The notes below the pieces were generated by a model. That model worked only from the letters and a program-made list of their open reading frames with translations, was not told where the DNA came from and searched no databases. Below, piece after piece: positions 36,701 through 45,700 of a stretch of DNA of 64,000 bases. The stretch is from contig CM037873.1 of the NCBI GenBank assembly GCA_021292105.1, forward strand, positions 11,695,489 to 11,759,488. Direction: 5' to 3'. Both the position numbers and the translations under genes were made by a program. The number at the start of each line of letters is the position of its first letter. Position 1 is the first letter of the stretch. The DNA is from Anadara kagoshimensis (taxonomy: Eukaryota > Mollusca > Bivalvia > Arcoida > Arcidae).

Positions 36701-39700
36701 TAAAGGGCAATAAATCATTTATTATACCAGATCATAACAAACAGTATATAAATGGTAGAAGAAATAGGAATACCTCAAGAAAACCACAAGCATTTAGCAT
36801 GTGAACTGATGAATTTCCTTACACTAGGACCTGCACCGAGCTGGTGATATCTTGATATAAGGAAATATTCTTAACTTGGACATAAAACATCAATCAATCA
36901 ATCAATCAATCAAAACACCCACCCAACCGACCGACCGACTGTCCCACCCACCCAACCATCCATCCATCCATCCATCCATCCATCCATCCATCAATCAATC
37001 AATCAAACCATTGCCACCATGAGTTACATCCACTATAGAATATGTATCTACATGATATAAGCAGCACGTCATCTTTGTCTGTACATACCTGAAAAATTAC
37101 TGGGCTTCATTCCTGGTCCAGTAACTGCTAAATGTCCATTCTTGATACTGAATTTATTGAATGACAAAACAGCCAGTCCATTTCCAGTGTTGTTCACCGT
37201 ATAGTGGCAGGACAGACCCCCTTTACCCGGTTTGTATATAGGACTCCTGAATCCTGATTGGCTTCTGTCAATAGTTTGGTTACATTCTAAAATAATTTGA
37301 AAGATGAAAATAAGTTGGTTTTTTTAAGTTAAGTACAATACAGAACAGTTTGAAACAGATCTAGAGGAAAAAGTATGTTACAACCCCCCCCCCCCCCCAA
37401 TAAAACAAAAAAACAGTAATAATTTTATTAGAATTGAATTTAATTCAACAAGTCAGAATTCTAAACTAAATAACATAAAAAACATGTAATATGTTATGTA
37501 ACATATAGGGGATATGGTAAACTTTTTCAAGGACTGCCAGAAGCCTTTGTGTGTTTTCAAATACCGTATATCTCCGTATATACGTCGCCCTAGTAGATAC
37601 GTTGCGCCCCCACCCCAGTCCAGCAAGCCAAGTATTTTCTAAAGGTTGTCTACATACGTCGCAACCAAAAATTTGCAAGAGAATATTCGAGATTTGCTCA
37701 GCAAGAGCCATTGATTTTCAATTCCATGAATAAAGAAACAAAAGCTTTTACCAGTGTTATTTATTAATTTTCTTCTTAATAAATATTGTTTGAATAGCTT
37801 GTGTAAATTAAACATGTATGTAGATATTATTTTTTACATGTATGGATACAAACAATGTAGATTGCTTGAATAAAACATGTACTGTTTGGCTCCCGATCAT
37901 GATATCGGTTAATTCACATGTTGTTGTTACAGACAAAGGAAGTCAAAGTTTGATCATGCGCAGAGGTTGCGATATGTATTGCATGATTTGTTTAAACAAG
38001 GGGGTGCTTATAGGGCTCATAGGAGCAGGCAATTCAGGAAAAATTGCATAAATATTTTTATACATAGCAAACAAAAGAGGAAAAAGAATGTATTTACTTT
38101 TACAGTGTTTTGACTTTCAATGCTGTTTTTCTACATGTTGTATTAATGAAAACAAAACCTACCAGTATTTAGAAATAATTTTTAAGCATTGAAAGATTTT
38201 ACATAATTATTATAATAGATAGTACTGGTAATCTGTTAGTTTTTAGAGGTTTAAGAATTAAGAAAATACAAATTCTCATTGGGACAGCCAATAACATAAA
38301 AACAGTGGTATATACTGCATTATGAGATCTAGAAATGCTTGCAGTTGTCAGTTTTTGTCACAGTTAGTAACAAATGTGTTTTGTCAATTAGATAATTTTA
38401 CTAATATAATATCTGCAATTTATACAATTTCCTAGTACATGTATTGAAAACAAACTCTATCCTAGAAATTTCCACATTATAAAATAATATTTAAATACAG
38501 TAAATATTTATTCTTCTAATTTTTTGTTCAGATATTACATACAGCATGTTTAATATACATGTACTTACTTTTAGTGTCGTAACTAAGAGACATGGTGTCA
38601 AGCTGATTTATATTGTTATCTTTCTGATAGATAATGGTGGTGACATTCTCCAGGGAAACAATCAAAGCTGAATCTGATAAATAAAGAACAAAAATTAAAA
38701 AAAAAACCAATAAATCACAAAACTTTGTTTGTGTGCCTTAATTATGGATATAGATTATGTCACTCTAATAAGTACATCTTACTAAGTATGTAGAATAAAG
38801 TTACGTTAACCTAAAAATTCAAAAAGAGTAATAGTGTTCTATGTAATTGTAGGATCTGTTCTTGATGGGATAAAGATCAAGGCAGTCAGAGCGACTGCAA
38901 TCTATAAGCGCACACTTAAGACCACTCAACCACCAAGGCCCCTCTAAAATTACTGTTTACTCTCTGCAGAGAAAGGAACGATGCAAAAATTTTCACAGAT
39001 TTTCAATGGCAGGGTTAAAAATCAATTATCATTATCTGATTTTGTTTACATGCTAGTATTTTTTCAATGCAGACAAGGCAAAAACTTGTTTCTTTGAGTC
39101 CTCTTATTCCAATCTATACATACCAGCAGCTCCTTTGCCATATTTCACTATCTGTTCATTACAATTTATACATACAGCAGCTCCTTGCCATATTTCACTA
39201 TCTGCTCATTACAATTTATACATACCAGCAGCTCCTTTGCCATATTTCACTATCTGTTCATTACAATTTATACATACCAGCAGCTCCTTTGCCATATTTC
39301 ACTATCTGCTCATTACAATTTATACATACCAGCAGCTCCTTTGCCATATTTCACTATCTGTTCATTACAATTATACATACCAGCAGCTCCTTTGCCATAT
39401 TTCACTATCTGTTCATTACAATTTATACATACCAGCAGCTCCTTTGCCATATTCACTATCTGTTCATTACAATTTATACATACCAGCAGCTCCTTTGCCA
39501 TATTTCACTATCTGTTCATTACAATTTATACATACCAGCAGCTCCTTTGCCATATTTAACTATCTGTTCATTACAATTTATACATACCAGCAGCTCCTTT
39601 GCCATATTTCACTATCTGTTCATTACAATTTATACATACCAGCAGCTCCTTTGCCATATTTCACTATCTGTTCATTACAATTTATACATACCAGCAGCTC

Positions 39701-42700: not shown

Positions 42701-45700
42701 TACATACCAGCAGCTCCTTTGCCATATTTTACTATCTGTTCATTACAATTCATACATACATGCAGCTCCTTTGCCATATTTCACTATCTGTTCATTACAA
42801 TTTATACATACCAGCAGCTCCTTTGCAATATTTTACTATCTGTTCATTACAATTTATACATACCAGCAGCTCCTTTGCCATATTTCACTATCTGTTCATT
42901 ACAATTGATACATACCAGCAGCTCCTTTGCCATATTTCACTATCTGTTCATTACAATTGATACATACCAGCAGCTCCTTTGCCATATTTTACTATCTGTT
43001 CATTACAATTAATACATACCAGCAGCTCCTTTGCCATATTTCACTATCTGTTCATTACAATTTATACATACCAGCAGCTCCTTTGCCATATTTTACTATC
43101 TGTTCACTACAATTTATACATACCAGCAGCTTCTTTGTCATATTTCACTATCTGTTCATTACAATTCATACATACCAGCAGCTCCTTTGCCATATTTTAC
43201 TATCTGTTCATTACAATCTATACATACCAGCAGCTCCTTTGCCATGTTTGCCATATGTTACTATCTGTTCATTACAATTTATACATACCAGCAGCTCCTT
43301 TGCCATATTTTACTTTCTGTTCATTACAATTTATACATACCAGCAGCTCCTTTGCCATATTTCACTATCTGTTCATTACAATTTATACATACCAGCAGCT
43401 CCTTTGCCATATTTCACTATCTAATCATTACAATTCATACATACCAGCAGCTCCTTTGCCATATTTTACTATCTGTTCATTACAATCTATACATACCAGC
43501 AGCTCCTTTGCCATATTTAACTATCTGTTCATTACAATTCATACATACCAGCAGCTCCTTTGCCATATTTTACTATCTGTTCATTACAATTTATACATAC
43601 CAGCAGCTCCTTTGCCATATTTCTCTATCTGTTCATTACAATTTATACATACCAGCAGCTCCTTTGCCATATTTCACTATCTGTTCATTACAATTCATAC
43701 ATACCAGCAGCTCCTTTGCCATATTTAACTATCTGTTGATTACAATTTATACATACCAGCAGCTCCTTTGCCATATTTTACTATCTGTTTATTACAATCT
43801 ATACATACCAGCAGCTCCTTTGCCATATTTCACTATCTGCTCATTACAATTTATACATACCAGCAGCTCCTTTGCCATATTTTACTATCTGTTCATTACA
43901 ATCTATACATACCAGCAGCTCCTTTGCCATATTTCTCTATCTGTTCATTACAATTTATACATACCAGCAGCTCCTTTGCCATATTTTACTATCTGTTCAT
44001 TACAATTTATACATACCAGCAGTTCCTTTGCCATGTTTGCCATATTTCACTATCTGTTCATTACAATTTATACGGTACATACCATCAGGTCCTTTGCCAT
44101 ATTTCACTATCTGTTCATTACAATTTATACATACCAGCAGCTCCTTTGCCATATTTTACTATCTGTTCAGACTTGTTTCCTTCGTATATGATGATTGAAC
44201 TGTTGCTAGTTATATTAAAGGTCAGTTGTATTGAAGTTTGCTTATCTCCGGCCCCTCGTTTTATATACCAAGCACATGTTTCATTTGCGGATACTGATGG
44301 TAGATCTATTACTCCAGTTGCATTAGTAAATGTTTCACCACAATCTGTAACAAGATATTTCATATATAATTATAAATATTTTATTATTATCTATACAGTA
44401 GCATTTATTATCCCATAGCCTCATGAAGCATGAAAATTTCCTCCATAATTCATAAAATACTTTCTCCATAACTTCATGAAAACAGATCTCCATAACCACA
44501 TGAAAACCTGTCCCCTTAACTTCATGTAACATGTCTCCATAATCTTATGAAACCTATAGATCCCCATAACCTCATGATGAACAAGAGCACCGCCGAGCGG
44601 AGCATTATACGCCCGTGTTATATTGATCGAGTAGGTAGTACTATTTACTGAGAAGTATAAGTACAACTAGGATATATGTATGTAAAAATATATTACCAAC
44701 TCCGTGTTCGGGCCATAACTCGTAACCCAAAAAGTTGTAATTCAAATTTGCACGAGATATTACCATGATTAAGGTGTAACTGTATAACAAATTTCATTTA
44801 AATCCATGTTTGTATTGTCTACTGAATGGAATACAAACCACATGGTCATACATACAAAAATTTCTAAGTTAAAAAAGGGGCATAACTCCTCCAAAAATAA
44901 TCTGAAAAAGTTGTAATTCGAACTTGCACCAGATATTAACATCGTAAATGTGTATACCAAATGTATAACAAATTTCATTTAAATCCATGCTTGTATTGTC
45001 TACTGAATGGAATACAAACCACATGGTCATACATACAAAAATTTCTAAGTTAAAAAAGGGGCATAACTCCTCCAAAAATAATCCGAAAAAGTTGTAATTC
45101 GAACTTGCACCAGATATTAACATCGTAAATGTGTATACCAAATTTCATTTGAATCCATAAATAGTTGTAGGCTCTAATGATCGGAAACCACATGGTCATA
45201 AATACAAAAATTTCTAAGTTAAAAAAGGGGCATAACTCCTCCAAAAATAATCCGAAAAAGTTGTAATTCGAACTTGCAAAAGGTATTACCATGGTAAAGC
45301 TGTATACCAAATTTCATTTGAATCCATAAATGTTTGTGGTCTCTATTGAACGGAATACAATTGTTAACAGACGTCCGCCCGGACGGACAGCACCGTAACA
45401 TAATACGTCCCGTCATATGACGGGCGTATAAAAACTATAAGGTATATCAATCTATTTTTCCTACCATGAAGTCATAAAGACAATAAGTGTGAAGCAAATC
45501 AATACAGGATGGAAGGGATCATTATATGTACACTATTCTTATTCTTGCCATAATTTCATGGAAGACAATTGAGGTAGTTCAGTTGGTAGAGTGTTCACTT
45601 ACTATGTGGAAGGTCAGGGTTCAAACCTCAGTTGGGTCTGATCGAGACTTGAAAATAGGTAGTGACTGTTCTGTTGCCATACACCAACCATTTAGAATTG

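What the first reader, a model, noticed from the sequence alone, without database searches (positions are those of the whole stretch)
39115..44344. A 97-copy minisatellite made from the gene's own exon-intron junction
The 52-bp unit is the final 28 nt of CUB1 exon 3 plus the first 24 nt of its intron, and the array begins exactly at that exon. Exon and intron share TGAACAG just before the 28-nt segment and at the end of the 24-nt segment (TCTGAACAG|ATAG in the exon, AATGAACAG|ATAG in the unit), so slippage or unequal exchange at a 7-bp microhomology is a simple origin. The result is about 97 consecutive copies of a coding-end plus consensus donor (CTG|GTATGT) inside one intron of a conserved-looking gene.
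Basis: seen in the sequence. Interest (0 to 1): 0.92.

Follow-up and report, generated by a model that had tools for sequence, protein, structure and literature searches.

The report
Minisatellite born from exon-intron splice junction
About 97 near-identical copies of the end of one exon and the start of its intron make up most of an intron of an animal gene, and the same genome holds other arrays that look made the same way, so it is a real and recurring but not categorically new kind of repeat, related to the human ABCA7 repeat, and a natural test of how cells pick one splice site among many identical ones.

Summary
On the minus strand, 97 full copies of a 52-bp unit run from inside exon 3 (44169) to 39107 and make up about 92% of the exon 3-exon 4 intron. 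A genome search found no copy elsewhere. Correction: the unit is the last 35 nt of the exon plus the first 17 nt of the intron, not 28 + 24; the proposed 7-bp microhomology is the start of copy 1, and the intron beyond the array lacks it. Splicing from the first donor to exon 4 keeps the frame; any later donor adds a stop. GT stands in 97 of 97 copies, without sign of selection. No RNA data.

Not unique: of 14 other donor-bearing arrays whose 5' edges I read, 9 also start inside an exon-like open segment, including NOA1, an SLC5-type transporter and a trypsin-like protease; 5 do not show one. The genome is minisatellite-rich (13.5% of 200 kb) and no enrichment was shown, so a neutral origin suffices. 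Closest known: human ABCA7 intron 18 VNTR. New member of a known kind.

The parts
39107..44169 (-). 52-bp minisatellite, 97 full copies; each = 35 nt exon-derived (TGAACAG...GCTGCTG) + 17 nt intron-derived (GTATGTATAAATTGTAA)
   Evidence: TRF; cyclic alignment, 97 full copies; 96 matches listed, each at this place, in a DNA search of the 1.1-Gb genome whose counts are lower bounds
44135..44344 (-). exon 3 (210 nt, phase 1 at both ends), first half of a CUB-like domain; its last 35 nt are copy 1 of the array
   Evidence: open frame between TTGTTACAG| and |GTATGT; residues 1-55 align with the gene's own CUB of 18.6/17.7 kb at E 7e-08
44133..44134 (-). GT of the first donor (G|GTATGT), inferred to be the one used
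   Evidence: joining it to exon 4 keeps frame and phase; read-through meets TAA at intron position 15-17; GTATGT also follows two other exons of this gene as read by eye
38569..38673 (-). exon 4 (105 nt, phase 1), second half of the CUB-like domain
   Evidence: open frame between TTTATCAG| and |GTAAGT; a genome protein search with exon 3 + 4 gave two matches, these two exons
38674..44134 (-). intron 3 (5461 nt); the array makes up about 92% of it (39107-44134)
   Evidence: coordinates
39100..39106 (-). distal flank TAAGAGG, directly after copy 97; does not repeat TGAACAG
15619..46183 (-). host gene (partial model read by eye): several CUB-type exons, one LDL-receptor class A domain, one hydrophobic segment, stop
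   Evidence: exon reading; Pfam CUB 37.4 and 31.3 bits, Ldl_recept_a 35.8 bits in 3 of 6 pieces tried; exon 5-6 and exon 7 had no Pfam match

Best explanation
A short tandem duplication once copied the last 35 nt of exon 3 together with the first 17 nt of its intron. Later slippage, unequal exchange and conversion multiplied and homogenised the copies into a 5-kb intronic minisatellite. The gene still works because the spliceosome uses the donor of copy 1, the one attached to the intact exon (exon definition), and removes the remaining 96 copies with the intron. Shown here: anatomy, unit composition, array homogeneity and a block with a 4-unit higher-order repeat, no sign of constraint on the donor sites, frame logic, and the same anatomy at other loci of this genome. 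Inferred: the mutational steps, first-donor use, neutrality, that the gene works. By analogy with ABCA7, a small share of transcripts should use donor 2 and carry a premature stop.
For: 97 full copies starting inside the exon. Exon 3 joined to exon 4 at donor 1 is phase 1 to phase 1 and open; read-through past donor 1 gives ...[14 protein letters not shown]. 52 is not a multiple of 3, so extra units shift the frame. GT stands at the donor place in 97 of 97 copies, but the donor hexamer has 4 of the 34 distinct variants in 6 of 52 sites (3.9 expected by length), and the wider donor (-3 to +6) 8 of 34 in 9 sites (5.9 expected), so no constraint is seen (insertions not counted). 36 unit types, 38 copies identical, mean pairwise difference 3.5%; lag 4 and lag 8 similarity in copies 26-77 (permutation p 0.004 and 0.0025 among 8 lags tried per block; in copies 1-25 no lag under 0.2). 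The genome is full of tandem arrays: 27,096 of 200,000 sampled bases, including one 25-bp array of 96.5 copies. In 9 of 14 examined donor-bearing arrays elsewhere the array also starts inside an exon-like open segment.
Against: No RNA data, so the used donor is unproven. Copy 1 differs from the consensus at one site, by a base that 23 of 97 copies have: it is not distinguishable from the array, so conversion into the exon cannot be excluded. CUB assignment of exon 3 is weak. The blastp of CUB1 against the gene's own CUB stops at residue 55, before the exon 3-4 junction; a gapless match across the junction is my reading by eye only, and the start of the last exon of that comparison CUB was also set by eye.
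Confidence: 0.77

Rival explanations
1. The array is a functional splicing regulator: dozens of near-consensus U1 sites act as decoys or a U1 platform and tune how much correct mRNA is made, with later donors giving stop-containing transcripts that are degraded.
For: 86 of 97 copies read exactly CTGGTATGTAT and 97 of 97 have GT there; later donors would add a stop codon. In ABCA7, one-unit retention and length-dependent exon 19 skipping were measured (PMC5954066, passages).
Against: Donor variation is no lower than expected by length (4 of 34 distinct variants in 6 of 52 sites). In ABCA7 the one-unit retention did not depend on array length.
Confidence: 0.1
2. The array, or its length, is an assembly artefact.
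For: No reads seen; 1-bp deletions occur near the distal end (copies 79, 85, 91, 92, 96).
Against: Variants are linked and shared between distant copies (copies 79 and 96 share G at site 4 plus a deletion at site 23; 85 and 91 share one deletion); ordered 4-unit repeats in copies 26-77; chromosome-scale contig of 60.6 Mb.
Confidence: 0.05
3. The 28-nt pieces between ...TGAACAG| and |GTATGT serve as a ladder of micro-exons.
For: The unit has an AG before and a GT after a 28-nt piece.
Against: TGAACAG is best read as exon sequence, not a selected acceptor; no pyrimidine tract before it; 24-nt introns would be too short (recalled); 28 is not a multiple of 3.
Confidence: 0.02
4. Duplication by slippage at a pre-existing 7-bp microhomology TGAACAG.
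For: TGAACAG stands in the exon and at the end of the units. A later deletion at the distal edge could have removed the intron's own copy.
Against: The intron after the last copy has TAAGAGG; probability 0.005 if it had been TGAACAG and changed at the neighbouring rate.
Confidence: 0.06

Closest known systems
Human ABCA7 intron 18 VNTR (PMC5954066; 12 of 17 matching passages seen)
   Same: Minisatellite immediately next to an exon, including that exon's splice donor; about 12 to 427 copies; use of a donor one unit downstream (25-bp retention) is seen and shifts the frame.
   Different: ABCA7 unit is 25 bp, C-rich, and the array begins at the donor GT; here the unit is 52 bp, AT-rich, and two thirds of it is coding exon end. 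ABCA7 has RNA, allele and disease data; here there are none.
Internal tandem repeats at exon-intron boundaries in human segmental duplications (PMC2812944; 12 of 18 matching passages seen)
   Same: Minisatellite expansion across exon-intron boundaries that alters gene structure; 27 intron modifications after manual inspection in that study.
   Different: Mean there about 30-bp units, 4 copies, 160 bp; found in recent paralogues. Here 97 copies, and no paralogue of exons 3-4 was found.
Tandem duplication as a source of new introns (PMC2891723, listing and start of abstract only; PMC1783408, title seen in a reference list, not held)
   Same: A duplicated splice-site segment creates extra splice sites.
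   Different: Here no new intron is inferred; an existing intron grew.
C. elegans CeRep25B intronic minisatellite (PMC4039745; 12 of 21 matching passages seen)
   Same: Intronic minisatellite associated with splicing.
   Different: In the passages seen it is a dispersed 24-base repeat, not described as made of a host gene's exon end.

Membership tests
Minisatellite / VNTR | head-to-tail copies of a 10-100 bp unit | tested here: met
   period 52, 97.0 copies, 95% matches
Minisatellite / VNTR | copy number varies between alleles | not testable with these tools
   one assembled sequence only
Exon-donor junction array (ABCA7-like) | array starts at or in an exon and carries its donor in each unit | tested here: met
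   copy 1 = end of exon 3 as read from the open frame; GT in 97 of 97 copies
Exon-donor junction array (ABCA7-like) | downstream donor copies are used in some transcripts | not testable with these tools
   no RNA data
CUB domain (PF00431), exon 3 + 4 | Pfam score over the gathering cutoff | tested here: not met
   exon 3 with its read-through end 13.4 bits, cutoff 21.4; spliced exon 3-4 no hit
CUB domain (PF00431), exon 3 + 4 | homology with an accepted CUB domain | tested here: met
   E 7e-08 over residues 1-55 (exon 3 part only) with the gene's own CUB, which itself scores 37.4 bits
CUB/LDLa membrane protein (host gene) | CUB and LDLa domains over cutoff in the same gene | tested here: met
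   CUB 31.3 and 37.4 bits, Ldl_recept_a 35.8 bits; that these exons are one gene, and the membrane segment, rest on reading by eye

The most novel reading that the evidence does not exclude
In this genome exon-donor junctions are repeatedly amplified into arrays of from 3 to about 97 donors, in conserved genes (NOA1, an SLC5-type transporter, a trypsin-like protease, a MYND-finger gene, the focal CUB gene), and the spliceosome still chooses the first of many near-identical donors. The ends of these exons then evolve in concert with non-coding intron repeats. This would be a genome-wide natural experiment on the choice between identical 5' splice sites, and a lineage-specific route of intron growth.
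Probability: 0.4. Interest if true: 0.65.

Novelty: new member of a known kind. Interest (0 to 1): 0.5.

Why it matters
When identical 5' splice sites compete, which one wins and why has mostly been studied on constructs with a few copies (recalled). Here are natural introns with up to tens of nearly identical donors behind an intact exon, in several genes of one genome and with donor numbers from 3 to about 97. Full-length cDNA from this species would show directly whether the first donor always wins and how errors scale with copy number. The human counterpart ABCA7 shows that such arrays can alter splicing and disease risk. They also expose the last codons of an exon to homogenisation with intron repeats.

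Tried and rejected
The 7-bp microhomology origin was rejected on the distal flank. Micro-exon ladder rejected on frame and acceptor grounds. Constraint on donors: looked for, not found. A 24-base piece of the unit sought in viral contigs: 0 exact matches. Paralogues of exon 3-4 that might show the empty intron: none found by the genome protein search. PDB search with the spliced CUB1 gave 6 sequences at E up to 10, none named as a CUB protein, best E 0.0017. A host-gene CUB census (PF00431) did not complete.

Enrichment test: arrays with three AGGTAAGT at 20-50 bp spacing number 1376 places against 872 for the pattern read backwards, and 651 against 249 with CAGGTAAGT, but a few large arrays dominate. 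Counted as arrays in the same stretch (C1 and C2 to 49.0 Mb, where the listing ends) there are 7 donor arrays and 6 control arrays: no enrichment shown. The edges of the control arrays were not read. The mirror question (arrays at acceptors) could not be finished: one search counted 361 places against 250 for its control but gave letters for the first place only.

Dropped rows: of 16 donor arrays listed (7, 9 more; both listings are cut off), 14 were read; C3:1056069 and C3:46072541, whose units resemble neighbours, were not. Of the 14, no exon was shown for C1:10072007 (a possible signal-peptide exon; Pfam only a sub-cutoff hit), C1:42446003, C2:17403132, C3:42798329 and C3:42990429. One search tried to split the unit at 12 places; it failed at 5 where the fetched stretch was too short (4 of these were re-read; C3:42990429 was not), and its 7 + 35 split for C2:63662926 is doubtful.

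Literature: (open-licence PMC papers only). No report of such an array in a mollusc appeared in these listings; this is not evidence of absence elsewhere.
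Full report
What is there. The window lies at C17:11695489-11759488 of a 1,115,223,567-base genome in 36 contigs. TRF finds 52 rows in the window; by far the largest is 39106-44169, period 52, 97.0 copies, 95% matches. A cyclic alignment on the minus strand gives 97 full copies from 44169 to 39107. A DNA search of the whole genome with 261 bases over exon 3 and its junction lists 96 matches, each at this place (the tool calls its counts lower bounds and skips very common words).

The host gene. On the minus strand I read, by eye, exon-like open segments with splice sites at 46183-46043, 44344-44135, 38673-38569 and on down to a stop at 15619. 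Of six pieces put to Pfam, two score as CUB (31.3 and 37.4 bits, cutoff 21.4) and one as LDL-receptor class A (35.8 bits); exons 2-3-4 and exons 5-6 have no match, the last piece only sub-cutoff hits. Exon 7 has none either. Exon 3 with exon 4 gets no Pfam hit; exon 3 with its read-through end gets 13.4 bits; the PDB search names no CUB protein. Against the gene's own CUB it aligns with E 7e-08, 22 of 63 identical, over residues 1-55. So 'CUB1' is at best a diverged CUB-like domain.

The unit, corrected. Periodicity begins at TGAACAG inside the exon, 35 nt before its end. The unit is therefore 35 nt exon (TGAACAGATAGTGAAATATGGCAAAGGAGCTGCTG) and 17 nt intron (GTATGTATAAATTGTAA). The other end of the array decides: after copy 97 (...GTATGTATAGATTGGAA) the intron goes on with TAAGAGG, which equals TGAACAG at 3 of 7 sites, while the 17 nt before it equal the unit at 15 of 17. 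Four or more changes in seven at that rate has probability 0.005. The TGAACAG of each unit is then exon sequence, and the duplication joint has about 1 bp (T) of homology. A later deletion at the distal edge could mimic this and is not excluded.

Evolution of the array. There are 36 unit types among 97 copies, 38 copies identical, mean pairwise difference 3.5%, insertions left out of the count. Divergence is highest on the exon side (mean 2.5 differences in copies 1-24, 1.9 in 25-50) and falls to 1.3-1.4 in copies 51-97. In copies 26-77, units 4 and 8 apart resemble each other more than in shuffled order (p 0.004 and 0.0025; 8 lags tried per block; in copies 1-25 no lag under 0.2): a local four-unit higher-order repeat. 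Copies 79 and 96 share two linked variants. This is ordinary concerted evolution of a minisatellite and speaks against a stuttering assembly.

Splicing logic. Exon 3 ends in phase 1 and exon 4 begins in phase 1, so donor 1 to exon 4 gives an open frame. Reading past donor 1 gives [10 protein letters not shown] and stop, so every later donor would carry that stop; 52 is also not a multiple of three. GTATGT also follows two other exons of this gene as I read them, so the array donor is a normal one here. GT stands in 97 of 97 copies and CTGGTATGTAT is exact in 86 of 97; but distinct variants in the donor hexamer (4 of 34 in 6 of 52 sites) are what length alone predicts, and in the wider donor (8 of 34 in 9 sites) rather more. 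I conclude: neutral array, first donor used. First-donor use is inference.

Not a one-off. I searched the genome for three AGGTAAGT spaced 20-50 bp and three CAGGTAAGT. The listings are cut off after about a hundred places; they show 16 arrays on C1, C2 and part of C3. I read the 5' edge (in donor sense) of 14 of them (on stretches). In 9 of 14 the array starts inside an open segment that ends at the first donor: C1:15781236- (unit 44 bp, 31 + 13), C2:10240688- (5 donors), C2:28311219- (39 bp, 17 + 22), C2:49041029+ (48 bp, 29 + 19), C2:63662926+, C3:573176+ (19-bp unit), C3:29473927-, C3:31098204+ (3 donors), C3:46054163- (3 donors). Seven of the nine segments begin after an AG; two (C2:63662926, signal-peptide-like, and C2:49041029) begin with ATG as I read them. 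All nine were put to Pfam (8, 1): three exceed the cutoff (MMR_HSR1 29.3, SSF 37.4, Trypsin 53.4 bits), MYND falls just short (21.9, cutoff 22.7), five have no meaningful match. Three were put to the PDB: C1:15781236 matches Nitric oxide-associated protein 1 (NOA1) from end to end (E 5.8e-15), C2:49041029 the sodium-dependent multivitamin transporter (E 4.2e-20), C3:29473927 nothing. So four of nine have outside support as coding, five rest on the open frame and splice signals alone. In 5 of 14 no exon was shown. So arrays seeded by an exon-donor junction recur in this genome, with donor numbers from 3 to, with the focal one, about 97.

Is it more than chance? With so many arrays some must fall on junctions. 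In the same stretch (C1 and C2 to 49.0 Mb) the reversed motif gives 6 arrays against 7. I therefore do not claim enrichment. What the cases do show is tolerance: conserved genes carry such arrays at the donor.

Known relatives. The human ABCA7 intron 18 VNTR lies next to exon 18 and includes its donor; alleles run from about 12 to 427 units of 25 bp; use of a donor one unit downstream is observed and frameshifts, without dependence on length; exon 19 skipping rises with length (PMC5954066, passages). Tandem repeats at exon-intron boundaries are described in human segmental duplications (PMC2812944, passages). The present array is built like these. It is a new member of a known kind, with a larger exon share in the unit than ABCA7, and with siblings in the same genome.

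Limits. No RNA, no reads, no relatives, no annotation. The exon after the NOA1 array could not be fetched, nor the acceptor-side counterpart read.

Noticed in passing
29830-31666 with 32838-33369, and 33448-34848 with 35404-35684: A 145-bp array followed by a 31-bp array occurs twice in a row with the same units, which looks like a duplicated block of about 3.6 kb inside an intron of the same gene.
   Followed up: no
6427-7460: A third array with a 145-bp unit that looks related, beyond the host gene's stop.
   Followed up: no
61303-63487 (+): Open frames that look like the reverse transcriptase of a non-LTR element (my reading of the translation; no family search run).
   Followed up: no
47629-48747: Several short arrays of the 16-bp unit GTCATTTCGGCACCAG in both orientations.
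   Followed up: no
genome C1:15781236-15784203 (L041, L047): About 3 kb of a 44-bp unit (some 67 copies) that starts at the end of an NOA1 exon; the closest sibling of the focal array.
   Followed up: partly
genome C2:49041029 to beyond 49044400 (L044, L048): SLC5-type exon array with a 48-bp unit, a multiple of three, in which the exon frame stays open through the copies read: use of later donors would insert whole blocks of 16 residues.
   Followed up: partly
genome C3:42798329 and C3:42990429; C3:573176 and C3:1056069; C3:46054163 and C3:46072541: Pairs of donor arrays with the same or nearly the same unit at separate places on one contig, suggesting duplicated segments that carried their arrays along.
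   Followed up: no
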